57,052 bases of DNA from assembly GCA_017479985.1 (NCBI GenBank), contig JAFVBL010000033.1, forward strand, positions 1 to 57,052, written 5' to 3'. The notes beneath the pieces are model-generated. The model was not told the origin of the DNA and did not search any database. It worked only from the letters and a program-made list of their open reading frames with translations. Positions 7,335 to 25,071 of this stretch are shown here, in pieces. The stretch's first letter is position 1. Every line of letters begins with the position of its first letter. Made by a program: the position numbers and the translations under genes. The stretch comes from Alphaproteobacteria bacterium (lineage in GTDB: Bacteria; Pseudomonadota; Alphaproteobacteria; RF32; CAG-239).

Positions 7335-7426
7335 GGTAAGATGGCAGAGTGGTCGAATGCGGTTGACTCGAAATCAATTGTACGTTTTACCGCGTACCTA
7401 GGGTTCGAATCCCTATCTTACCGCCA
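7335..7426 (+). tRNA. tRNA-Ser(CGA)
   Basis: This 92-nt class II tRNA has the acceptor stem GGTAAGA / TCTTACC, an anticodon stem GTTGA/TCAAT around the loop CTCGAAA (anticodon CGA), and a long variable arm (about 7378-7398). The T-arm is AGGGTTCGAATCCCT, the discriminator base is G, and CCA is encoded. It marks the border between the core ribosomal operon and the accessory island. Confidence 0.95.
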
Positions 7427-7466: not shown

Positions 7467-8143
7467 TTCAATAACTTAAGTTGGTCCGTATAATATGTTT
7501 TTAAAAATGCTGTTTTTTGAAGTTTATACGGACCATTTATAATAACATTCTTGTAAAATCAATAAGTTAGTTAAAATGTATTCTCCAAAAATCCCCGCCC
7601 GTATGCTTTCTGCCTGTTGCTTTTATTTTCCCCATTTGTGATTGATGAGCAGATTTTTTTAATTATTCTGTTTCCGTTGATTCCTAAAAAATATTTTCGT
7701 CCTTACCTACATAGAAAATTGCCTAAAATATAACTTTTTTACCTTCAACACATTCATCAAATATAGCAAAAATCAAAAAAACTCAATGCCAAAAATTTCA
7801 TAACTAATTGAATTTATTATATATATTTTATTTTTCTATTTTATAAAATATAACGAAAAATATCTTTTTAAGCAAAAATAATCAATCAAAAAAAATTTCC
7901 GCAACAAAAATATTTATTTTACCGCAAAATATAAAAATAATTTAGCCAAAACAATAAGTTGCAAAAACGCATTTAGTAGAAATGGAAATTTAGTTAAGTA
8001 GAAATGCCAAAAAACAGGGATTTTAAAAAATAGGGGGGTGTACTATGCCTGACCCTGAATGAAAATAATTTACACCAATCGATAATAATTATTTGAAAAA
8101 TATTCAATCTATTGGTGTTCATAACGAATAAAGGTAAAAGAAC
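7467..8143. other. AT-rich intergenic region with two inverted repeats
   Basis: No convincing gene is seen. A perfect 12-bp inverted repeat TGGTCCGTATAA / TTATACGGACCA lies at 7482-7493 and 7524-7535. A second 12-bp pair with one mismatch (ACACCAATCGAT at 8072-8083, ATCTATTGGTGT at 8107-8118) sits just before the ribosome site (AAAGG) of the polymerase gene, where it could act as an operator or origin element. The left edge of the island is probably in this stretch. Confidence 0.6.
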
Positions 8144-11100
8144 ATGGCAAATTATAAAAGCCTTTACGATCATGAGCATGAAGAAGCAATTGCTATCTAT
8201 TGTGCAAAGAATAATGTTGAATTTGATGAAGCAAACGCATACGATGTGGTGCTTGAAACATTTAAGAATAATCCAATCAAATACACTCATAAAGACAAAG
8301 AAACAGGCGAAGAAAAAGAATATGATAAAACACAACGTGTTGCTCGGCAAATTGAATTTCAGCCAAAAACTATCGCACGAATTGCAGCGAAAGCGGAAGT
8401 ATATAAAAAACGTTTTGCTGCAGAGTTCTATGCAAAAAATATTGAAAAAGCTAAAAAAGACAGAGCACCGAGTTTGGATAAACTGGTCGATAATTTGTAT
8501 CTGCTGAATATTGTTGATGGACAAAGTTATTTGGCTTTTGTAAATAATTTAATGCAGATTGTTTATTCGCGAGACAATGAAATCCCTGAAGATGACAAAA
8601 CTTGCATGATCTTCAACGGCGTTCCACGCAATGGTAAATCAGCAACGGCGAAAGCTATCTGCGAAGTTGAAACTCAATTTGGAAATGTATACAGAGCCGG
8701 CTCTCCAAAAATTTTAAGTGCGCAACATGCTGAACGTGTATATCAGAGCCACCTTAATTCTTTTGATGAAATAAAATCATCAGATATTGTTCGTGAAGAT
8801 GTGTTAAGTCTTATTAACGGCGGTGAAAGAGAACTGGATCCGAAAAATAAAAAGCAATATATACAGCGTGTCAACACCAACCTTATTTTTACCTCAAATG
8901 ACCAACTTAATCTTATCCAACGGCGCATATCATTGATTAAGTTCGGAAATAGGTTGAATGGGCGACCGCTTGGGGAGGGCACGCTAAAAAACATCATAAC
9001 CGAAATTATGAATTCATTACCGGATTTTAGTCATTACTACGATATATATAACATTGTTTCAAAGTATAACGAAAACAGAGTAAATCCCCAAGCTGTCGAT
9101 GATGTAATAAGTTTTATGTATTCTAAGTTTGGATTTGTAAAAGAAACAGACGATGTTACATTAACGGCAGAAATAATTTTTTCTCCTCATGATGTATACG
9201 AACATATCAGAGGCCAAAATATTAAACAAATGGTTATATCAGAGCGCAAAGATTCTATCAGAACATTCTTACGCTTATTGGCGGAAAGAGGTATTGTTGA
9301 TGAAATCAAATATCCTAAATGCACAACAACTAGTTATAAAGTTAACGGGGCTAATTTTTTAAAAATTGTTACGGAATTTCAGAAAATAAATACAAAAGAC
9401 GAGGTAAACACAAAAATCACGAAGCAGGAACTTAGGGATTTATTGGCTCCTTATTTTGAGCCAACGTTACCTGAGGATTATGTGCCGCTCACCAAAATTA
9501 AGTTACCGGAAGTTATTATTACACCGCCTCCGGCTAAATTATTGGCTTTGCCGAGTCCGGAGTATTTTAATAAAAACAGCGGTGAAAAAGATATGAAAAA
9601 TGGCAATGCAGCTAACGCGAAAAGCAGTAATGTAACTGATGCAAAAAGCGCTAGTGTAGCAGAAATTAAAAATAGTGTCACAAGCACAATCAAAGAACTG
9701 TCGATTGATTTGGAAACTTATTCCGATGTGGATATTAAGCAGAACGGTGTTTATAAATACGCTGACAGCTCAAATTTTGACATTTTGCTGTTTGCCTATT
9801 CGGTCAACAGCGGAGATGTTAAAGTGGTTGATTTAGCGTCAGGCGAAAAAATTCCTGAAGATGTATTAAAGGCTTTGACCGATGATACAGTAATCAAGTG
9901 GGCTTTTAATGCTAATTTTGAGCGTGTCTGTTTGTCGGTATGGCTGAAAAAATATTATCCGCAATATTTTAAGGGGTATCAGTCAGATGAAAAAGCGTTG
10001 CAAAATTACCTTTCCCCGACTTCGTGGCGGTGTTCTATGGTCTGGTCAAATTATGTCGGGTTGCCGCATAGTTTGGATGCTGTCGGAAAAGAACTTAATC
10101 TGACCGACAAAAAAATGAAGGAAGGCAAGGAACTTATTAAATATTTCTGCTGTCCGTGCAAGCCAACTGCCAAAAACGGAATGCGCACGCAAAACTTGCC
10201 GCAGCATAATCCTGACGACTGGGAAACATTCAAGCAATATAATAAGCGTGATGTTGAAGCGGAACTAGAAATTAAAGAACGTTTGCGCCTCACGCCTGTT
10301 CCAGAAGATGTTTGGAAACAATATGTCATAGACCAAAAAATCAATGACCGAGGCGTTAAAATTGATACGGCTTTTGTGCAAAAAGCGCAGGAAGTTGACG
10401 ATACGATCAGAGATATTAATTATGCTGAGCTGAAAAATATAACTGGACTTGATAATCCCAACAGCACGGTGCAGTTAAAAAATTGGCTGAAAACACAGGG
10501 TGTTACTACAGAAAACCTTGATAAAAAAGCAATCGAGGAGCTGTTGACACAGCATAATGAGGGCATAGTGCCGCAAGCATTAAAATTAAAGCTGCAACTG
10601 GCTAAAAGTTCGGTCAAAAAATATTCTCGTATGCAGGATATGACAACACAAGACGGACGCGCAAGAGGTTGCTTTATGTTCTATGGTGCCACTACAACCG
10701 GTCGTTGGGCAGGCCGCGGTATTCAGTTGCAAAACTTGCCGCAAAATCACTTAAAAGAACTTGATGCGGCTCGTAATGCGATTCTTAATGCCGATTATGA
10801 AGCTATGAGAGAAAAATTTATCAGCGAAGATGGCAAAACATCATATAACACACCTGATGCGTTATCGCAACTACTTCGCACTGCCATAATTCCTGATGAC
10901 GGTCATAAATTTATTGTAGCTGATTACAGTCAAATTGAGGCTAGAGTACTATCTGTTATTGCCGGTGAAGAATGGCGTCTTAAGGCTTTTGCAAACAACA
11001 AAGATATTTATTGTGAAAGCGCTTCGCATATGTTTAACAAACCTGTTGAGAAAAACGGTATCAATGGTGATCTGCGTGATAAAGGAAAAATTGCCGAATT

Positions 11101-11695
11101 AGCTCTCGGTTATGGCGGCGGTGAAAATGCTTTAATCCGTATGGGGGCTTTAGACATGGGAATCAGTGCGGAAGAATTGCCGTCGCTTGTTACACAATGG
11201 CGTGCATCCAATCCCCAAATCGTCGAATTTTGGAAAAAGTGCGATAAAGCTGCAAAAGAAGCTATCAGAAAACGCTCATATGCCGAAGTTGATAATATCC
11301 GGTTTTGGTGCCCTGAAAATATTCTATATATTGAATTACCTTCCGGTCGCTCTTTAGCTTATCGTAACCCTGAGCTCCAAAAAGATGAAAACGGATACGA
11401 TAAGATTGTTTACAGAGGCGGAAAAGATAAAAAACTACAGGAAGTCAGCACCTATGGTGCAAAACTGGTGGAAAACATCATTCAAGGCATCAGTCGGGAT
11501 ATTTTGGCTTATGCTTTGGGGAATTTAGCCGACTATAAAGTTGTGGCGCATGTTCATGATGAAGTCATTGTTGAAGTGCCGATGAATATAAAAGATGAAA
11601 CGATTTGTAATATTATGTCACAAACGCCGTCATGGATTGAGGGGCTTCTATTAAAAGCTAAAGGCTATGAGTGCCCTTACTATCAGAAACAATAA
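8144..11695 (+). CDS. SF3-type helicase / 3'-5' exonuclease / family A DNA polymerase fusion
   Basis: This 1183-residue replication protein appears to carry three enzymes. Residues about 110-300 form a superfamily 3-like helicase: Walker A GVPRNGKS (159-166), Walker B-like SFDEI (206-210), sensor-1 FTSND (249-253), then an Arg-rich RRISLIKFG. A low-complexity linker (about 475-515) leads to a DnaQ-like proofreading exonuclease with DLET (522-525), NANFE (589-593) and YNKRDVEAE (Asp703). The C-terminus is a phage-type PolA: TTTGRWAGRGIQLQNLPQ near 851, motif A VADYSQIEAR (Asp927), motif B RDKGKIAELALGYG, motif C HVHDEV (1138-1140). Phages usually encode the helicase and polymerase parts separately, so the fusion is unusual. 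All polymerase motifs look intact. It is probably the replisome of an integrated element. Confidence 0.9.
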   Translation: MANYKSLYDHEHEEAIAIYCAKNNVEFDEANAYDVVLETFKNNPIKYTHKDKETGEEKEYDKTQRVARQIEFQPKTIARIAAKAEVYKKRFAAEFYAKNIEKAKKDRAPSLDKLVDNLYLLNIVDGQSYLAFVNNLMQIVYSRDNEIPEDDKTCMIFNGVPRNGKSATAKAICEVETQFGNVYRAGSPKILSAQHAERVYQSHLNSFDEIKSSDIVREDVLSLINGGERELDPKNKKQYIQRVNTNLIFTSNDQLNLIQRRISLIKFGNRLNGRPLGEGTLKNIITEIMNSLPDFSHYYDIYNIVSKYNENRVNPQAVDDVISFMYSKFGFVKETDDVTLTAEIIFSPHDVYEHIRGQNIKQMVISERKDSIRTFLRLLAERGIVDEIKYPKCTTTSYKVNGANFLKIVTEFQKINTKDEVNTKITKQELRDLLAPYFEPTLPEDYVPLTKIKLPEVIITPPPAKLLALPSPEYFNKNSGEKDMKNGNAANAKSSNVTDAKSASVAEIKNSVTSTIKELSIDLETYSDVDIKQNGVYKYADSSNFDILLFAYSVNSGDVKVVDLASGEKIPEDVLKALTDDTVIKWAFNANFERVCLSVWLKKYYPQYFKGYQSDEKALQNYLSPTSWRCSMVWSNYVGLPHSLDAVGKELNLTDKKMKEGKELIKYFCCPCKPTAKNGMRTQNLPQHNPDDWETFKQYNKRDVEAELEIKERLRLTPVPEDVWKQYVIDQKINDRGVKIDTAFVQKAQEVDDTIRDINYAELKNITGLDNPNSTVQLKNWLKTQGVTTENLDKKAIEELLTQHNEGIVPQALKLKLQLAKSSVKKYSRMQDMTTQDGRARGCFMFYGATTTGRWAGRGIQLQNLPQNHLKELDAARNAILNADYEAMREKFISEDGKTSYNTPDALSQLLRTAIIPDDGHKFIVADYSQIEARVLSVIAGEEWRLKAFANNKDIYCESASHMFNKPVEKNGINGDLRDKGKIAELALGYGGGENALIRMGALDMGISAEELPSLVTQWRASNPQIVEFWKKCDKAAKEAIRKRSYAEVDNIRFWCPENILYIELPSGRSLAYRNPELQKDENGYDKIVYRGGKDKKLQEVSTYGAKLVENIIQGISRDILAYALGNLADYKVVAHVHDEVIVEVPMNIKDETICNIMSQTPSWIEGLLLKAKGYECPYYQKQ

Positions 11696-11712
11696 AACTG
11701 ACTCATAAGAAA

Positions 11713-11790
11713 ACCCTATATGCATCTGATTCGTTTTTGCGATAAATGGCTAAGCAGAGGTTGAATTCGTGCATATAGGGCTGTTTTAGG
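11713..11790 (+). terminator. Inverted repeat behind the polymerase gene
   Basis: CCCTATATGCA (about 11714-11724) pairs with TGCATATAGGG (about 11773-11783), followed by CTGTTTT. The 48-nt loop is long for a simple terminator. The position directly behind the polymerase stop and between convergent genes still favours transcription termination; an element-specific DNA site is the alternative. Confidence 0.5.
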
Positions 11791-11805
11791 AGCTTTAGGG
11801 AAATC

Positions 11806-12081
11806 CTATTTCTTAAACAAGTCGGAGTGCGAGCCGATATGGACAGCATATAAAATCAATTCAGACTTCTCTACTTTATAAATCAACAATAAATCCGGCT
11901 TAATATGACATTCGCGATAGTTTTTATAATTACCGCTTAAAGCGTGGTCACGATATTTTGCCTCTAAAGTCTTTTCTGCAAGCAAAGTATCTAAAACAAG
12001 CTTAAGTTCTGCCTTATCTTTGGCATTTTTGATTTTTTTAACTTCTGTCTTAAACGCAGAAGAAACAACCAGTTCCAACAT
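11806..12081 (-). CDS. Type II toxin, YafQ/RelE family mRNA interferase
   Basis: This predicted ribosome-dependent endoribonuclease is the toxin of a two-gene module. Visible features are a RelE/YafQ-type fold sequence with HALSG, RECHIKPDLLLIYK and the terminal GSHSDLF, where the conserved C-terminal His is part of the YafQ active site. The frame opens at 12105, but the ATG at 12081 (MLELVVSS) is preferred because it follows the antitoxin stop at 12084-12086 in a TAATAATG arrangement and gives 91 residues, normal for YafQ. It would be neutralised by the upstream DinJ-like protein. It lies inside the island, where such modules often stabilise mobile DNA. Confidence 0.88.
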   Translation of the reverse strand: MLELVVSSAFKTEVKKIKNAKDKAELKLVLDTLLAEKTLEAKYRDHALSGNYKNYRECHIKPDLLLIYKVEKSELILYAVHIGSHSDLFKK

Positions 12082-12083
12082 TA

Positions 12084-12353
12084 TTAAAGTCCCAAATCCT
12101 GCCACATTTCATCGGTATTTTTATAGCGCGTTAAGTCCTTTTTATTTTCAACATCGGCTATAACCTGCTGCAACATTTCATTTGGCTCATATTCCGGTTT
12201 CAATGTTGGCTTAAACGGTATGCCTTTATGAATAATAACTTGCATTAAAAACATACGGATTGCCTCATTCAGGCTAATCCCCAACTGATTCATGATATTT
12301 TCGGCATCTTCCTTAACCTTACTGTCTATCCGTGCTTGAATAAGTGCATTCAT
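12084..12353 (-). CDS. RelB/DinJ family antitoxin
   Basis: This 89-residue protein has an N-terminal ribbon-helix-helix (ALIQARIDSKVKEDAENIM, then LGISLNEAIRMFL), the DNA-binding and dimerisation half of DinJ/RelB antitoxins. The C-terminal part should wrap the toxin. AAGGAGA precedes the start by about 7 nt, and a strong promoter lies at 12382-12410. By family analogy the complex represses its own promoter. Confidence 0.9.
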   Translation of the reverse strand: MNALIQARIDSKVKEDAENIMNQLGISLNEAIRMFLMQVIIHKGIPFKPTLKPEYEPNEMLQQVIADVENKKDLTRYKNTDEMWQDLGL

Positions 12354-12436: not shown

Positions 12437-12757
12437 TTACCATTCATCGGCGAGCATAATTGTTAGAACACGCTTGGTTATGCTCGGATTAGCAGGGTTT
12501 TCGGAAGCATAGCATGTATTAAACCGGTCGTAATAATCGATTTTCCAAAAGATTTTATTGCCGTTATATACAAAGCTTCCGAAGTCATGTTCGCCATAAG
12601 GATCGTTGTCCGGTGTAAAATCATTAAAATCTTGCACCAACTGCAGAATATTTGCAACATCTTCGGCATCCATTGAATCAATACCGGCAGTCAAGAGTAC
12701 CTGACCACCGGTAAATGTTTTGCGAAAATTATCGTTCAGGGTTTTAATGTCGGTCAT
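12437..12757 (-). CDS. DUF3768 family protein
   Basis: This 106-residue protein has the family hallmarks LNDNFRKTFTGGQVLLTAGI, FTPDNDPYGEHDFGSF, FWKIDYYD and a terminal RVLTIMLADEW. DUF3768 proteins are known mainly from alphaproteobacterial plasmids and mobile islands, and their function is unknown. The start overlaps the upstream stop by one base (TAATG), so translation is probably coupled to the 87-residue gene before it. Confidence 0.85.
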   Translation of the reverse strand: MTDIKTLNDNFRKTFTGGQVLLTAGIDSMDAEDVANILQLVQDFNDFTPDNDPYGEHDFGSFVYNGNKIFWKIDYYDRFNTCYASENPANPSITKRVLTIMLADEW

Positions 12758-13023
12758 TATTTTGCGCTTTCAACATTTGTTTCGTTCAAAAATTCGCTAA
12801 ACCGACGCAACGCATTAATAACCGAAGAATGCGAACGCTTGCCATAGCTTGCCTTTTTGCCGGTCTTTTCATATTGAGGCATAATTTCCGGCAAATGTTG
12901 CGCCAAATGTTCATAAGATATTTTTTCTTTCCGACACAATCTATCCAACCGGCTCGGATAATCAACCGAGGTTAAAGGGCTGTAATTTTTAGCTAAAAGA
13001 TATTGTTCAAATTGCTTTTGCAT
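12757..13023 (-). CDS. Small hypothetical protein, helical, coupled to DUF3768
   Basis: This 87-residue protein is predicted helical. The frame opens at 13137, but AAAGGAA about 7 nt before the ATG at 13023 (MQKQFEQYLLAKNY) decides the start. The segment YLLAKNYSPLTSVDYPSRL and the later INALRRFSEFL recall the core-binding (SAM-like) region of tyrosine recombinases, but no catalytic domain follows. That resemblance is weak and the function is unknown. It shares an operon with DUF3768. Confidence 0.7.
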   Translation of the reverse strand: MQKQFEQYLLAKNYSPLTSVDYPSRLDRLCRKEKISYEHLAQHLPEIMPQYEKTGKKASYGKRSHSSVINALRRFSEFLNETNVESAK

Positions 13024-13063
13024 AGTGTTTTCCTTTCTAAAATTAGGGGTTAAAGTTTGAGAT

Positions 13064-13204
13064 TTAATTGTTAGCGTTGACGCTGACGATGTCGATGACC
13101 ACCGCACAACCGCGTTCTTTTTCGATATATGCTGCATCTAAGGCATCGCGATAGCTCCAGTAGATTGTCGGCATCAAAATTCCGTTTATTTTAATCTGCC
13201 ACAT
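13064..13204 (-). CDS. 46-residue small protein
   Basis: A short frame starts at ATG 13204 with a strong AAGGAGA site and encodes 46 residues, beginning MWQIKINGIL and ending VNANN. It contains YWSYRDALDAAY and a basic/acidic middle. It precedes the 87-residue gene and DUF3768 on the same strand with about 40 bp spacing, so it may be the first gene of that operon. No family is recognised. The good ribosome site is the main evidence. Confidence 0.55.
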   Translation of the reverse strand: MWQIKINGILMPTIYWSYRDALDAAYIEKERGCAVVIDIVSVNANN

Positions 13205-20308: not shown

Positions 20309-20851
20309 TTACTCCACATTATTTTTCACATATCGGAGTAATGTTGAGCGCGAACAATTAATTTGTTTGGCAATACGCGTCAAATTTTCACCTTCATCCA
20401 AAAGCTTTTTAATCTGTCCATCATGCGCTTGTAACAAAAGTTGTCCGTTTCGCGGCGCACCGCGCGGTTTTCCTTGTTTCAATAGGTCATCTTGTATCTT
20501 TTTGTTTTTGAAGGATAAAATACCCTTATATAACCCTAAACAAATATCAGCAAGCTTACCAATTGTTTGCGGTAACGTTGTATTAATTAAAATTTGCTCT
20601 TGTACCGTATATAAAACCACTTCACGCTGTGCCAACAACTTGACATTTTTGATGATTTCCTCATAATGTTGTCCCAAAGTAGCAACGCTGGCAATAATGA
20701 CCGAATCGCCGGAATTAAAATGTTTGCATACAACAGCAAAGTTTTCGAAAACAAGGTGCTTATCAATAATTATGCCTGAAATATCAAGATATTCATTGAT
20801 GTTTTGTTTATCTTCTTTCTGTCTGTCTTTAAGCAAAATTGCATATTTCAT
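20309..20851 (-). CDS. Catalytically degenerate serine recombinase-like protein
   Basis: This 180-residue protein has the plan of a resolvase/invertase, but the catalytic residues are gone. The N-terminal YIRVSS of active enzymes is YAILLKD here (no Ser), and the SRLGRS arginine motif is replaced by ATLGQH. The linker GKPRGAP and the C-terminal helix-turn-helix IAKQINCSRSTLLRYVK are kept and resemble the active paralogue at 21107-21706. It is the first gene of the polysaccharide operon: its stop overlaps the ribosome site of the GT2 gene. It probably binds DNA as a regulator or accessory subunit; this is inference. Confidence 0.82.
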   Translation of the reverse strand: MKYAILLKDRQKEDKQNINEYLDISGIIIDKHLVFENFAVVCKHFNSGDSVIIASVATLGQHYEEIIKNVKLLAQREVVLYTVQEQILINTTLPQTIGKLADICLGLYKGILSFKNKKIQDDLLKQGKPRGAPRNGQLLLQAHDGQIKKLLDEGENLTRIAKQINCSRSTLLRYVKNNVE

Positions 20852-21106
20852 TAGTTATCTTGTAGTCCCTGTTTGAATATTCATTTTTAATGCTTTCATT
20901 AATGGCATAAAACCAACGTTTAAATCAACCAGATTTTGACTCTTTTGCACTTTTTATTTGGATTTTAGTAAAATATAACAAAATCAATACATTGCAGTGA
21001 TTTAAAGCCTATTCAACATACGCTGAAAAATTAAATTTCACCAACTGGAAACAAACGTTCTATTAAAATGACCAGTTTTTTTTTAATATTTTTGGAGATT
21101 TTTTAC
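20852..21106. promoter_or_regulatory. Divergent control region between the two recombinase genes
   Basis: These 255 bp of AT-rich sequence separate the oppositely oriented dead and active recombinase genes. AACGTTT occurs near 20912 and, inverted, near 21053 (CAAACGTT), but the core is a short self-palindrome and not a convincing recombination site. The region must contain promoters for both directions and possibly a res/inv site. Confidence 0.45.
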
Positions 21107-21706
21107 ATGACTACAATAGGTTACATCAGAGTTAGTTCGAATAAACAGACGCTTGAACATCAGCGTTTTGAGATAGAAAATTTTGCACGTCGGGAAAGTA
21201 TAAAAATTGATACTTGGATTGAAGAAAAAATATCGTCCCGAAAAGCTCTTGATAAACGCAAACTTGGGGAATTATTAAATAATTTAAAGGAAAATGATAT
21301 ACTGATAACTTGTGAAATCTCGCGTTTAGGCCGTTCTCTGCTTGAGGTTATGAAGATTTTGGAAACCTGCCTTAATAAAAATTGTCAGGTCTGGACATTA
21401 AAAGAAAATTATCGGCTCGGCAATGATATACAAAGTAAAGTTTTAGCCTTCGCATTCGGACTTGCTGCTGAAATTGAACGGCAGCTTATTTCCGAACGCA
21501 CTAAATCAAGCCTTGCAAATATAAAAGCAAACGGTAAAAAGCTCGGCAGACCATTCAATGCTGAAACAAAAAAGCTCAAACTGGCTAAAAATCAAAAACA
21601 AATACAAAAATTGTTAGCTCAAGGCATATCAAAATCCAAAATCGCAAAAATATTTAATGTTGAGCGAGCTACTTTGCGAAAATATCTGCTGTCAGCACAA
21701 GCCTAA
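21107..21706 (+). CDS. Serine recombinase (resolvase/invertase family)
   Basis: This 199-residue protein contains the catalytic GYIRVSSNKQT (nucleophile Ser), ITCEISRLGRSLLEVM, the E-helix LAFAFGLAAEIERQLISERT, the LGRP linker and a C-terminal helix-turn-helix IAKIFNVERATLRKYL. It is intact and is expected to invert or resolve DNA between short sites. The frame opens at 21068, but GGAG before ATG 21107 decides the start. It is divergent from the degenerate paralogue that heads the polysaccharide operon. Confidence 0.93.
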   Translation: MTTIGYIRVSSNKQTLEHQRFEIENFARRESIKIDTWIEEKISSRKALDKRKLGELLNNLKENDILITCEISRLGRSLLEVMKILETCLNKNCQVWTLKENYRLGNDIQSKVLAFAFGLAAEIERQLISERTKSSLANIKANGKKLGRPFNAETKKLKLAKNQKQIQKLLAQGISKSKIAKIFNVERATLRKYLLSAQA

Positions 21707-21815
21707 AATCATCTTAGACATTCCCCAAACGTACGAATTTCGTTTTTCTATGCAACGTATCATCAAAACCAATTCCGGCTGTTCTGGGGAGATTTAGGAA
21801 TCATAGGGAGATGTT

Positions 21816-22301
21816 TTACTTTCTAACCGGAATGTCAAACAATACATGCGACGGAATAATGCGGTCGGTATCGATAGCATCGCAATTTACGCACATTTCC
21901 TTAGAACAATACGACACAACATAGTCTTTATAGGTTGTAATCGGCTCTAGTTTTAGGGAATATAACGGCAGATGCAACGCTGTCATTGTCTTGAAAATAG
22001 CTGTGTTTAGCTCGGTATCACTAAAATTCTGCTGATTAACTAAAATATGATAATGCCACGTTTCCCCATACCCTTTTTCTGCTGTGGCAATGAAAGGCAG
22101 ATGCTTTTTATGCCAATGACGCCCCAACAAACGATATTCAAATGCTGACATAATCTTCTTGAGCGCACGTTCAGACACATCCTCATTAACTGATTCCATA
22201 TTCTCCGGAAGTCGTAAAGTTAAAAAATGTGTCGGATTATATGAGCCAGCCCATGCGTTTATAACTTGCTTTAATTTTTGCGTTTTTTCTAAATTGTTCA
22301 T
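21816..22301 (-). CDS. HUH endonuclease-like replication initiator
   Basis: This 161-residue protein has motifs in the order of rolling-circle Rep proteins: a hydrophobic FLTLRLP (motif 1-like), TWHYHILVN with the H-x-H metal site (motif 2), and YVVSYCSKEM with Tyr-x-x-Lys (motif 3). These would nick DNA at an origin and stay attached through the Tyr. It is short for a Rep and has no helicase domain; the element's SF3-like helicase is in the polymerase fusion. Palindromes and direct repeats that could be an origin lie upstream (22600-22835). A relaxase or RAYT-like role is possible. Confidence 0.65.
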   Translation of the reverse strand: MNNLEKTQKLKQVINAWAGSYNPTHFLTLRLPENMESVNEDVSERALKKIMSAFEYRLLGRHWHKKHLPFIATAEKGYGETWHYHILVNQQNFSDTELNTAIFKTMTALHLPLYSLKLEPITTYKDYVVSYCSKEMCVNCDAIDTDRIIPSHVLFDIPVRK

Positions 22302-23162
22302 TTTTTGACTCCAGAATCACGATTTTTATTTTGACGACCAATTTGCTGTTTTTACCTAAATCAGTATGCTGAACAATGTTCAAAACATTCGGGGAATAGT
22401 AAATCAGCGTTTGTCTGGGCTTAATTTCAACATTTGCGGATAGAATGCATATAAACTGTTTGCGGGGAATAGCTTATAAATGGCTCAAAAATCACGCTGT
22501 GTTATTACTGATTTTTTTAGTAGCATAATACATACAAATAGAATGTATTAGAGAGAGGGAATATATAGGATAGAATATAGAGGGAAATAGTAATAGCTAG
22601 AGGGAGTGTCGCCTTGCTGATTATGACATCACAGCCTGTGGCTGTTCGTGTCATCAGCTTATTGGCGACATAGCTTTTATGAGGCTTATGTCATCGGTAA
22701 TACATGGACTAAACAGACATTTGTCTGGAGCTAAGATGTATTAGGTTTGACATCTGCTGTGTAGGACAGAAAGACTGCTTGTTGTATTTTGCTGTTACTG
22801 CTCTTTACTCTGCTTATTACTGCTCTTTACTGTATAATGCTCTCTTTTTTACTTATTTTATATTTTAATAATATTTAGAATAATTAAACACAAAGAAGCT
22901 ATGCAAGACTTCTCTTTATTTCTAAAGGTCAAATGCTATGGTTAGACACAAGCCCTATAAAATATAGAACTTCCTATTTTTATGAATTTTGAAAAAATTT
23001 AATGCTGCCTATTAAATTTGACTGCTGTTGCACCCATTCCCCACGTAAATGGCGCGTTTTTTTTGAGGCCTATGCGCTTGATTAGACAACATAAAAATTA
23101 GAAATGGAAATTTAATTTAAGATTTTTCTTAAAACAGTCTCTCCAAAAGAATTCTATCCTAT
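22302..23162. other. 861-bp non-coding region rich in palindromes and repeats
   Basis: No supported coding region is seen. A nested imperfect palindrome lies at 22607-22670 (outer arms TGTCGCC / GGCGACA, inner GCTGAT-ATGACA / TGTCATCAGC, tip AGCC-TGT-GGCT). A second palindrome occupies 22667-22692 (GACATAGC / GCTTATGTC). A third spans 22699-22742 (AATACAT / ATGTATT around CAGACA-TT-TGTCTG). Two perfect 15-bp direct repeats TTACTGCTCTTTACT lie at 22795-22809 and 22817-22831, 22 bp apart. Further upstream CGGGGAATAG occurs twice (22390 and 22463). It looks like a replication or recombination control region, though a structured RNA is possible. Confidence 0.7.
22795..22831 (+). repeat. Iteron-like 15-bp direct repeats
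   Basis: TTACTGCTCTTTACT occurs twice without mismatch, with start-to-start spacing of 22 bp, about two helical turns, so both copies face the same side of the DNA. TATAAT follows the second copy. The arrangement is typical of protein-binding iterons. Confidence 0.6.
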
Positions 23163-23366
23163 ATGACAGATACATATAGTTTGCTCAAAAATGAGCTTAA
23201 AGTTTATTATCCCGACGTTACGGATGCTGAACTTAATGAAATAACCAACAGACTGGTGGATTTTTATACAATCGGAGCTAAGGCAATTTATGAGGCTGAA
23301 AAGGAGGTAAACATTGAAACAGTCCAGTTGCCTGATATTGACGATTCCAACGGTAAAAGACTTTAA
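23163..23366 (+). CDS. Small hypothetical protein upstream of the large serine recombinase
   Basis: This 67-residue acidic, helical protein (MTDTYSLLKNELKVYY...) contains DVTDAELNEITNRLVDFY. No strong ribosome site is seen, but the coding is plausible and the gene precedes the large serine recombinase on the same strand. Accessory factors of serine integrases (recombination directionality factors) are often this size, but there is no sequence evidence for that role. Confidence 0.55.
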   Translation: MTDTYSLLKNELKVYYPDVTDAELNEITNRLVDFYTIGAKAIYEAEKEVNIETVQLPDIDDSNGKRL

Positions 23367-23424
23367 CCTTCTGAATTTCCCTAAAAAAATAATGTTTGAA
23401 AGTGATTTTTTAGTGTGCTTTTGA
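23314..23424 (+). CDS. Possible 36-residue ORF with TTG start
   Basis: A near-perfect AAGGAGGT at about 23300-23307 lies inside the preceding small gene and is followed 6 nt later by TTG 23314, which opens a 36-codon frame. Without such a start the strong ribosome site has no partner. The product (KQSSCLILTIPTVKDFNLL...) matches nothing recognised. The site is real; the protein is doubtful. Confidence 0.25.
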   Translation: MKQSSCLILTIPTVKDFNLLNFPKKIMFESDFLVCF

Positions 23425-23484
23425 ATATTTACACGGTAGGATTGAATTATAATAAATACTAACACCTAAAAGGAGAATATTTTA

Positions 23485-25071
23485 ATGCGTAAAAAGTATC
23501 AAAAAAAGATTGTCGAAAAATGCACGGATGCAATTATTTTCACACGCGTATCAAGTGAGAAACAAGAAAAAGGAGCTTCCATTGATGCACAGAAGGAATC
23601 CATATATAATTACTGCACCAACCATAAATTAAATATCGTCAAAGAATATGAGATAACTGAAAGCACTATGAAAGGTGACCGTAAAAAATATAAAGAGATG
23701 CTGTCATTTGTGCAAAAATATCCTAAAACCATTGCTATCGTTGTTAATTGTGTTGACCGTTTGCAGCGCAGCGACAGAGATAATAATGCCTTAGATGATT
23801 TACGGCGTGACGGTAAAATCGAAGTGCATTTTTTGAAAGAAAATATGGTGCTGACGAAGGATTCTCGCGGTGATGAATTGCTGTTTTGGAAAATGAATGT
23901 GTTGATGGCAAACAGTTATGTTCTCTCGCTGTCATATAATGTAAAACGCAGCTTAAAACTTTTAAGAGAGCAAGGAGTTTGGCCGGGTGAAGCTCCTCTC
24001 GGATATTTAAATAAACGTGATGACAATAATAAAGCAATTATTGTTCTTGATCCAATAAGGGCACCTATTATTCAAAGATTATTTTCTGAATATGCAACCG
24101 GAGCACATTCACTTAAAACAATATGCCAATTAGCCAAAGAACTGGGTTTATCTTCAAAACGCAAGAAACGTGCAGCAGCTTTTATCAGTCGGAACGCACT
24201 GTATGATGTTTTAACTAATCCATTTTACTATGGCGAAATGTGCATTAAAGGCGAATTTTATAAACATATTTATCCGCCTCTGATTTCAAAAGAATTGTTT
24301 GACCAAGTGCAAAATCAGTTTGTCGGCAATGGTAATCACAATCGCAATAATACAGCGGAATATTCTAAGACACCATATATTTTTAGGAAACTCATACATT
24401 GCAAAGAATGCGGTTGTTTAATTACACCGGAAACAAAAGTCAAAAAGAGCGGCAAAAGATATACATATTTAAGATGTGCGCATCCAAATAAAAATTGCCA
24501 TCAAGGTATCGTAAATGAAAATGTGATTTTAGAGCAGATAAAAAATGAGGTGCTGAATAAAATATCGTTACCTCCAAAGCTTCAGGAATTACTGCAAAAA
24601 CATTTAATAAAACAACTGAATGACACAGCACAATTTAACACTACACTTAAAAGTAATATTACCAAACAGCTGACGGAACTTAAAATAAAGGAAGACAAAT
24701 TGCTAGATTTTTACCTTGAAGGTAAATTATCGCAAGCTACTTATGAAGAAAAACAGGCACAGATAATTCAGGAACGGCAAGAATTGGAAACTACTGCTGA
24801 AAAATATAAAATTATAGATGCAAATATGAAAGCCAATGTTAATAAAATTGTGTCAATGGCCGGCAATATATTATACATTTTTGAACAAGCAACAACGACA
24901 GATAAGCAAAAATTATTAAGTATGTTGATTACTGACTGTCAATTAAACGGCACCAAACTTGAATATACAATCTGCAAGCCGTTTGATAAACTGATTCAAT
25001 GTGCCGATTATACACAATGGCCGATGATAGCGGTTGAACATCTGGACGAATTCGAAAACATCAAAATATAA
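23485..25071 (+). CDS. Large serine recombinase (integrase)
   Basis: At 528 residues this protein has the full plan of phage- and element-type serine integrases. The N-terminal resolvase domain contains FTRVSSEKQEKGASIDAQ (nucleophile Ser) and NCVDRLQRSDRD. The recombinase domain has GVWPGEAPLGYLN and ALYDVLTNPFYYGEM. A zinc ribbon follows with CKECG and a later C/H pair, then a coiled-coil C-terminus. It should integrate and excise the island between short attB/attP sites. It sits at the right end of the accessory region, next to core-type genes, as expected for an integrase at the element edge. A good AAAGGAGA precedes the start. Confidence 0.95.
   Translation: MRKKYQKKIVEKCTDAIIFTRVSSEKQEKGASIDAQKESIYNYCTNHKLNIVKEYEITESTMKGDRKKYKEMLSFVQKYPKTIAIVVNCVDRLQRSDRDNNALDDLRRDGKIEVHFLKENMVLTKDSRGDELLFWKMNVLMANSYVLSLSYNVKRSLKLLREQGVWPGEAPLGYLNKRDDNNKAIIVLDPIRAPIIQRLFSEYATGAHSLKTICQLAKELGLSSKRKKRAAAFISRNALYDVLTNPFYYGEMCIKGEFYKHIYPPLISKELFDQVQNQFVGNGNHNRNNTAEYSKTPYIFRKLIHCKECGCLITPETKVKKSGKRYTYLRCAHPNKNCHQGIVNENVILEQIKNEVLNKISLPPKLQELLQKHLIKQLNDTAQFNTTLKSNITKQLTELKIKEDKLLDFYLEGKLSQATYEEKQAQIIQERQELETTAEKYKIIDANMKANVNKIVSMAGNILYIFEQATTTDKQKLLSMLITDCQLNGTKLEYTICKPFDKLIQCADYTQWPMIAVEHLDEFENIKI

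What the first reader, a model, noticed from the sequence alone, without database searches (positions are those of the whole stretch)
8144..11695. Helicase, proofreading exonuclease and family A polymerase fused in one protein
One 1183-residue chain carries SF3-like Walker A/B and sensor motifs, a complete DnaQ-like exonuclease and complete PolA motifs A, B and C. In the phages I know, the helicase and PolA parts are separate genes. A single-chain replisome could replicate the element without the host polymerase. A low-complexity linker near residues 475-515 marks the join.
Basis: partly seen in the sequence, partly recalled or inferred. Interest (0 to 1): 0.78.

Follow-up and report, generated by a model that had tools for sequence, protein, structure and literature searches.

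The report
Helicase–proofreading–polymerase fused in one protein
A small chromosomal element of a gut alphaproteobacterium encodes one protein that joins a DNA-unwinding motor, a proofreading nuclease and a copying enzyme; related phages keep the motor and the copying enzyme as separate genes, and a recent preprint treats motor and proofreading as alternatives.

Summary
The ORF is real: 8144-11695 (+) encodes 1183 uninterrupted residues. Residues 1-440 are an SF3/D5-type helicase (DUF5906; motif residues identical in the window and 5 relatives). Residues 518-1183 are a phage-type DnaQ exonuclease plus family A polymerase. The joint at about 441-517 is a fast-evolving linker.

It is not a one-off error. 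A second species (RGIG4925, roe-deer rumen) carries residues 369-1183 in one frame across the joint. In a third genome helicase and polymerase are neighbouring separate genes, the likely pre-fusion state. Three further loci have the helicase and no polymerase. The two fused copies are 95.5% identical in the polymerase (dN/dS about 0.17), but only 30% over residues 369-415: the helicase was exchanged by recombination near nt 9390.

No such fusion appeared in 80 viral loci, 12 annotated phages or 35 Clostridia genomes holding the polymerase. Precedents exist for the idea (GP55, Prex, TV-Pol/PolA-S3H), but not, in my searches, for SF3 + exonuclease + PolA. No primase or att site was found. Verdict: genuine, new variant of a known kind.

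The parts
8144..11695 (+). fused helicase-exonuclease-polymerase gene, 1183 aa
   Evidence: open frame; second species in one frame over residues 369-1183
8144..9463 (+). SF3/D5-type helicase module, residues 1-440
   Evidence: 51-60% identical relatives without a polymerase in G012:C101, G042 and G421; DUF5906 and Parvo_NS1 each match 6 of 6 aligned members
8618..8641 (+). Walker A, residues 159-166
   Evidence: G159, N163, G164, K165 invariant in 6 of 6
8750..8770 (+). Walker B, residues 203-209
   Evidence: H203, N205, D208, E209 invariant in 6 of 6
8879..8926 (+). sensor and arginine finger, residues 246-261
   Evidence: N246, I248, F249, S251, N252, D253, Q259, R260, R261 invariant in 6 of 6
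9215..9463 (+). region 358-440 after the ATPase (weak DUF6323 match; possible winged helix, inferred)
   Evidence: DUF6323 27.7 bits vs cut-off 30.6, in 1 of 6 members, so below cut-off
9380..9400 (+). recombination breakpoint inside the gene
   Evidence: identity to G012:C96 rises from 0.35 to 0.93-1.00 per 40-nt window while identity to C101 falls from 0.75 to 0.55
9464..9694 (+). variable linker, residues 441-517, at the former intergenic region
   Evidence: dN above dS over 481-513, dN/dS about 0.5 over 441-480; frame kept in both fused copies
9593..9595 (+). in-frame ATG (M484) near the former polymerase start; possible internal start
   Evidence: present in both fused copies; the unfused G852 polymerase starts at about the equivalent place
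9695..10303 (+). DnaQ-like 3'-5' exonuclease, residues 518-720 (approximate limits)
   Evidence: D522, E524, E593, D703 invariant in the 79-80 of 81 aligned sequences that cover them
10388..11602 (+). family A polymerase domain, residues 749-1153
   Evidence: PF00476 E 2.6e-26; Foldseek matches to apPol, phage G20c Pol I and Klenow at E 8e-18 to 3e-17
7776..7896 (+). AT-rich noncoding block shared upstream of the helicase in three other loci; candidate origin or promoter
   Evidence: 72-76% identity to L026, L028 and L038
7335..7426 (+). tRNA-Ser(CGA) 5' of the element
   Evidence: tRNAs also 5' of the helicase in G421 (Leu), G852 (Gln), G881 (Trp), none in the G012 and G042 stretches
11806..12353 (-). 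YafQ/RelB toxin-antitoxin pair
12437..12757 (-). DUF3768 protein, recurrent neighbour
   Evidence: PF12599 E 9.8e-34; similar proteins at G012 C96 and C101, G042, G421, G852
12757..13137 (-). orphan integrase N-terminal SAM-like protein, recurrent neighbour (conserved part starts at about 13023)
   Evidence: PF02899 E 3e-5; similar proteins at G012 C96 and C101, G042, G421, G852

Best explanation
The gene is the replicase of a small integrated mobile element of this alphaproteobacterial order. The element originally used only an SF3 initiator helicase. An ancestor took up a phage-type proofreading family A polymerase just downstream (state seen in G852). Loss of the helicase stop codon and growth of a low-complexity spacer then fused the two (state seen in G012:C96 and the window). 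Later, homologous recombination near nt 9390 replaced the helicase and its upstream noncoding region by those of a relative of the helicase-only elements. Proposed working: the N-terminal region and helicase recognise and melt the element's origin, the SF3 ring unwinds, and the tethered polymerase extends a primer on the exposed strand and proofreads it. The primer would come from host DnaG or a transcript. Shown: architecture, conservation, purifying selection on the polymerase, unfused and helicase-only relatives, module exchange. Inferred: order of events, origin binding, enzymatic activities, coupling, primer source, mobility.
For: Frame intact and repeated across the joint in RGIG4925. 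Two-gene neighbour form in G852: helicase ending ...LLALPSPDTF-stop, polymerase start 11 or 26 bases later depending on the ATG, 73% identical to ours. Polymerase dN 0.022, dS 0.135 between the two fused copies. Breakpoint and donor type: residues 369-415 are 30% identical to C96 but 55% to C101; residues 416-440 are 96% and 56%; upstream block 7790-7877 is shared with C101. Recurrent DUF3768 + SAM-like pair; tRNA 5' of the helicase in 4 loci; tyrosine integrase between tRNA-Leu and helicase in G421.
Against: No integrase gene beside the ORF and no duplicated tRNA end in the window, so mobility is unproven here. No tRNA in the fetched G012 and G042 stretches. The C96 contig starts at residue 369, so no second full-length fusion is in hand. 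The window is a contig of a fragmented genome (43 contigs, 83% complete), and its rpsM/tRNA-Ser adjacency is not seen in the relatives examined. An internal start at M484 could give separate polymerase. No primase was recognised. The helicase fold could not be modelled: pLDDT mostly below 50 over residues 99-367 of the full-length model, mean 36.4 alone.
Confidence: 0.7

Rival explanations
1. The frame is fused on paper, but the cell makes mainly two proteins: helicase (perhaps extended) and polymerase from the internal ATG at 9593 (M484), which replaces the old polymerase start.
For: M484 lies about where the separate G852 polymerase starts and is kept in both fused copies, with GGTGA (window) or GGTAA (C96) upstream.
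Against: The upstream sequence is a poorer ribosome-binding match than the GAGG of G852 (by eye). A 31-residue spacer between M484 and the exonuclease kept its frame in both species, and no separate stop-start arrangement has returned.
Confidence: 0.2
2. Assembly chimera: a helicase-only element and a polymerase element were joined wrongly at about 9390 in this genome.
For: Sharp identity change at 9390; fragmented genome; G012 carries both element types in one genome.
Against: The fusion joint at 441-517 lies downstream of 9390 and is independently present in C96. The compared type-A (C101) and type-B (C96) tails share at most 11 identical bases, too few for a de Bruijn-type misjoin, though the true parents are unknown. 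The crossover is at homologous positions and keeps the frame.
Confidence: 0.08
3. Decaying remnant: a formerly active prophage or element replicase now without function.
For: No integrase, att site or structural genes seen nearby; decayed helicase copies in G007 and G890.
Against: Full-length frame, catalytic residues conserved, dN/dS about 0.17 in the polymerase.
Confidence: 0.15
4. A repair or anti-phage role rather than replication of an element.
For: A related SAM-like gene also sits beside a DNA-methyltransferase-like gene in G018 (by eye); helicase-polymerase fusions such as PolQ work in repair (recalled; PMC8391894 seen in a search listing).
Against: SF3 helicases and this polymerase subfamily are replication proteins of viruses and elements (family knowledge); helicase-only relatives include one beside a tRNA with an integrase.
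Confidence: 0.07

Closest known systems
GP55 of lactococcal phage 1706 (PMC12205980; outline, abstract and passages seen)
   Same: one chain with an N-terminal SF3 helicase and a C-terminal polymerase with 3'-5' exonuclease
   Different: family B polymerase and an archaeo-eukaryotic primase domain; over 1000 homologues reported; ours is family A with no recognised primase
TV-Pol / PolA-S3H of virophages, polinton-like viruses and bacterial elements (PMC2579912 parts 1-2 of 3 read; PMC11071308 and PMC8547959 passages)
   Same: superfamily A-type polymerase linked to a D5/SF3 helicase in mobile elements
   Different: minimal polymerase N-terminal, helicase C-terminal; TV-Pols stated never to be linked to nuclease domains, PolA-S3H stated to lack the exonuclease. 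Ours has the reverse order, a full phage PolA and the exonuclease
SCCmec CCPol-MP-Cch2 operon (PMC7581432; abstract and passages seen)
   Same: A-family polymerase and initiator helicase of an integrated element
   Different: three separate proteins, no exonuclease, primase activity supplied by MP; ours is fused and of the proofreading type
Apicoplast Prex (PMC8113025 passages)
   Same: one polypeptide with helicase, 3'-5' exonuclease and family A polymerase
   Different: eukaryotic organelle, has a primase domain and (recalled) a T7/Twinkle-type helicase; the passage speaks of further processing to the exonuclease-polymerase part
Phage PolA of the phiNJ3 type (PHROG 17)
   Same: exonuclease-polymerase half, up to 54% identical in phage records
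   Different: not fused to a helicase in any example checked

Membership tests
SF3 helicase (D5/DUF5906 type) | Walker A, B, sensor and arginine-finger residues | tested here: met
   invariant in 6 of 6 aligned sequences, window included
SF3 helicase (D5/DUF5906 type) | recognised by family profile above curated cut-off | tested here: met
   PF19263 28.8 vs 27.6 bits for residues 1-478; 26.2, just below, for the whole protein; TIGR01613 E 4.7e-7 but 29.0 bits, far below its 108.7 cut-off, for the G852 relative
SF3 helicase (D5/DUF5906 type) | ring-forming AAA+ fold | tested here: inconclusive
   helicase region not modelled with confidence; no PDB sequence match to the helicase profile at E 10
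Family A DNA polymerase | motifs A, B, C and Klenow-like fold | tested here: met
DnaQ-like (DEDDy) exonuclease | D-x-E, ExoII Asp, YxxxD | tested here: inconclusive
   D522, E524, Y699, D703 present; ExoII is Glu593, as in all 79 of 81 aligned sequences covering it; activity untested
TV-Pol / PolA-S3H fusion | polymerase N-terminal to helicase, no nuclease domain | tested here: not met
   helicase is N-terminal and exonuclease motifs are present
GP55-type replicase | family B polymerase plus AEP primase | tested here: not met
   family A profile only; no primase domain by Pfam. Weak matches to phage 'DNA primase' families cover only their ATPase part
Prex | primase domain in the chain | tested here: not met
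   none found
Prophage | structural, packaging or lysis genes nearby | tested here: not met
   none noticed among the ORF translations at 4800-30000; only six neighbouring window genes were profile-searched
tRNA-integrated mobile element | integrase and duplicated tRNA end | tested here: inconclusive
   tRNA-Ser adjacent; no repeat of its 3' end; tyrosine integrase only in the G421 relative; no tRNA in the G012 and G042 stretches

The most novel reading that the evidence does not exclude
A single-chain replicase that couples an SF3 ring helicase to a proofreading family A polymerase, contradicting the published view that SF3-PolA fusions lack the exonuclease while exonuclease-bearing phage PolAs lack the helicase. 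Its helicase and upstream noncoding module is exchangeable, so recombination can re-aim one proofreading polymerase at different element origins.
Probability: 0.4. Interest if true: 0.75.

Novelty: new variant of a known kind. Interest (0 to 1): 0.58.

Why it matters
A 2024 preprint (PMC11071308, passages seen) proposes a compensatory relationship between exonuclease and helicase in viral polymerases, because known SF3 fusions lack the exonuclease and phage PolAs with the exonuclease lack the helicase. This protein carries both, so the idea becomes directly testable with domain knock-outs. The locus set also shows likely stages of a fusion: helicase alone, helicase and polymerase side by side, fused, and fused with the helicase exchanged.

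Tried and rejected
Prophage: no phage structural genes noticed around the ORF, so rejected for this locus. Fusion between a phage polymerase and its own phage primase-helicase: comparison with the phiNJ3 primase-helicase gave only a weak local match over the ATPase (probability 9.8) and with the L023 VapE-like protein only a 17-column match; those proteins carry D5_N or VapE domains that ours lacks, though all three share the DUF5906 ATPase. Integration into tRNA-Ser: no repeat of the tRNA 3' end in the window. Helicase in viral contigs, phages or plasmids: no match; these are pattern or BLAST limits, not proof of absence. The first viral scan also returned nothing, although later found hundreds of polymerase relatives, so one search was insensitive and is not counted. 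Replication iterons upstream: only weak, AT-rich repeats. Promoter scan: no more sites than in shuffles. Structure of the helicase half: failed. Literature for the exact combination: nothing found in the direct searches or in those for related terms; the library lacks most subscription journals, and one relevant paper was not held.
Full report
WHAT IS THERE. The ORF 8144-11695 (+) is a single open frame of 1183 residues. Pfam finds DNA_pol_A at 749-1153 (E 2.6e-26) and DUF5906 at 158-256 (E 1.4e-5, 26.2 bits against a cut-off of 27.6). For residues 1-478 alone DUF5906 reaches 28.8 bits, above cut-off; all 6 of 6 members of the helicase alignment (window and 5 relatives) match it (best E 4.8e-14), as they do Parvo_NS1, another SF3 family. 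PHROG 17 (phage DNA polymerase) matches 481-1182 with E 3.7e-139. The polymerase half models well on an alignment of 22 sequences, and the best PDB matches are apicoplast polymerase, phage G20c Pol I and Klenow. The helicase half could not be modelled and its profile has no PDB sequence match, so its SF3 assignment rests on motifs and profiles.

CATALYTIC RESIDUES. Walker A (G159, N163-G164-K165), Walker B (H203, N205, D208-E209), sensor (N246, I248-F249, S251-N252-D253) and arginine finger (Q259-R260-R261) are invariant in 6 of 6 (motif names recalled). In the polymerase, an alignment of 81 sequences (window plus 80 viral loci) shows the key residues of motifs A, B and C and exonuclease residues D522, E524, Y699 and D703 invariant in the 79 or 80 that cover them. 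The ExoII aspartate is a glutamate (E593) in all 79 that cover it.

IS THE FUSION REAL? A search of 94 genomes (own included) and one scan of genome contigs found a second species, RGIG4925 from roe-deer rumen, with residues 369-1183 in one frame at 88% identity. It is G012 of the unnamed set, judged by identical match places. That contig starts at residue 369, so it confirms the joint but is not a second full-length fusion. In the order, the polymerase occurs in 3 of 154 genomes, the window's own included: the window, G012 and G852. In G852 the helicase (486 residues, about 36% identical) ends in a TAA, and a separate polymerase (73% identical) starts 11 or 26 bases later, depending on which ATG is used; the second has a GAGG ribosome-binding match. 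The sequence around that stop aligns by eye with the start of the window's linker, so loss of the stop, with a low-complexity insertion, can explain the join. Helicase proteins occur without any polymerase match in the fetched stretch in G012:C101 (591 aa), G042 (718 aa) and G421 (696 aa), 51-60% identical. G881 is cut by its contig end.

RECOMBINATION INSIDE THE GENE. Between the two fused copies the polymerase (514-1183) is 95.5% identical with dN 0.022 and dS 0.135, that is, under purifying selection. Residues 416-440 are 96% identical. Residues 369-415, the only helicase part the C96 contig covers upstream of this, are 30% identical, with dS near saturation. Over 369-415 the window resembles C101 (55%) and the RGIG4925 copy resembles G852 (62%). 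The switch is at about nt 9390. The upstream noncoding block 7790-7877 is also shared with C101 at 76%. The simplest reading is that the window's copy exchanged its helicase and upstream region for those of a relative of the helicase-only elements. An assembly chimera is less likely: the compared C96 and C101 tails share at most 11 identical bases, although the actual parents are unknown. The linker diverges fast: dN exceeds dS over 481-513. Over 441-480 both are raised (dN 0.32, dS 0.64), so a further small exchange there is possible.

SURROUNDINGS. The ORF lies 3' of tRNA-Ser (7335-7426). Helicase loci in G421, G852 and G881 also follow tRNAs (Leu, Gln, Trp), while the G012 and G042 stretches show none. 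In G421 a tyrosine integrase sits between tRNA and helicase. Next to the window's gene are a YafQ/RelB pair, a DUF3768 gene and an orphan integrase N-terminal SAM-like gene. Similar DUF3768/SAM pairs lie beside the helicase or fused polymerase in G012 C96 and C101, G042, G421 and G852. No repeat of the tRNA 3' end was found in the window or in the G421, G852 and G881 stretches (two 11-base matches in the window and one in G421 are not convincing). The rpsM/tRNA-Ser adjacency is absent from the relatives examined: no tRNA lies in 10 fetched stretches beside rpsM, one of them only 764 bases long, and in four relatives where both lie on one contig stretch they are about 4 to 12 kb apart. A rearrangement or a contig join between about 7127 and 7270 is therefore possible; it does not touch the ORF.

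HOW RARE IS IT? None of 80 viral polymerase loci (the best 80 kept of 493 relatives, themselves from a capped list) has more than 60 residues, stop to stop, before the exonuclease; in two of the 80 the frame starts inside the exonuclease. Of 1945 phage records matching the full protein none covers 80% of it in one place. Of 40 spread hits listed among 1991 matching records I opened 12: the gene under the match is a separate CDS of 608 to 818 residues in all 12. In Clostridia 35 of 291 genomes match. Of the 50 match rows, 38 are uninterrupted in frames of 644-678 residues; the other 12 are pieces of five longer frames (820-974 residues) or fragments, none leaving room for a 480-residue N-terminal helicase (my count and arithmetic). 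The helicase itself was not found in the phage or plasmid collections or in viral contigs by a pattern scan with the helicase alignment. It was found in 8 of 154 genomes of the order, own genome included and three of them weak or broken, in 2 of 385 of a class sample (own and G421) and in 1 of 398 of a phylum sample, the window's own.

COMPARISON WITH THE LITERATURE. TV-Pols join a minimal superfamily A polymerase to a C-terminal D5 helicase and are said never to be linked to nucleases (PMC2579912, parts 1-2 of 3 read). A 2024 preprint says PolA-S3H and AEP-S3H fusions lack the exonuclease, phage PolAs with it lack the helicase, and infers a compensatory relationship (PMC11071308, passages). 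GP55 of phage 1706 shows that an SF3 helicase, primase, exonuclease and family B polymerase work in one chain (PMC12205980, outline, abstract and passages). SCCmec uses separate CCPol, MP and Cch2 (PMC7581432, passages). Prex is the organellar parallel (PMC8113025, passages). I found no report of SF3 + exonuclease + PolA in one chain in the direct searches, which cover an open-licence library only.

MECHANISM. Most likely an element replicase: the N-terminal region and SF3 ring melt and unwind the element's origin, and the tethered polymerase copies and proofreads. Architecture, conservation and module exchange are shown; activities, origin and primer source are inferred. No primase domain was found, so host DnaG or transcript priming is assumed. 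A separate polymerase from M484 remains possible (0.2).

VERDICT. It is a new variant of a known kind (single-chain replicases), of moderate to good interest because it breaks a stated either-or rule and its relatives preserve likely intermediates.

Noticed in passing
window 12437-13137: DUF3768 plus orphan integrase SAM-like gene pair, recurrent beside helicase elements and, in G018 (L063), beside an HUH Rep-like gene and a large serine recombinase instead; function unknown.
   Followed up: partly
L026 about 677-727, L028 about 9466-9520, L038 just upstream of the helicase: Hairpin directly upstream of three helicase genes (CCCCAGAAG...CTTCTGGGG in L026), with a paired change in G881 (CCTCAGAAG/CTTCTGAGG) and an imperfect form in G421; not seen in the window. 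Possible origin or regulatory structure.
   Followed up: partly
window 11702-11792: 23-nt inverted repeat (83% complementary) just after the polymerase stop; part of it (11734-11787) matches L026 2768-2821 on the other strand.
   Followed up: no
window 7482-7535: Perfect 12-bp inverted repeat (TGGTCCGTATAA) just after the terminator-like site behind tRNA-Ser.
   Followed up: no
window 20309-25071: Two small resolvase-like genes (by eye), an HUH Rep-like gene (PF23343 E 6.1e-9) and a large serine recombinase; parts are homologous to a block in G018.
   Followed up: partly
L059:1741-2086 (G026): Second partial copy of the tRNA-Ser 3' end and terminator about 110 bp after the first, like an integration scar.
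   Followed up: no
G958, G957, G1044, G922: Clostridia phage-type polymerases with inserts inside the polymerase frame, perhaps inteins.
   Followed up: no
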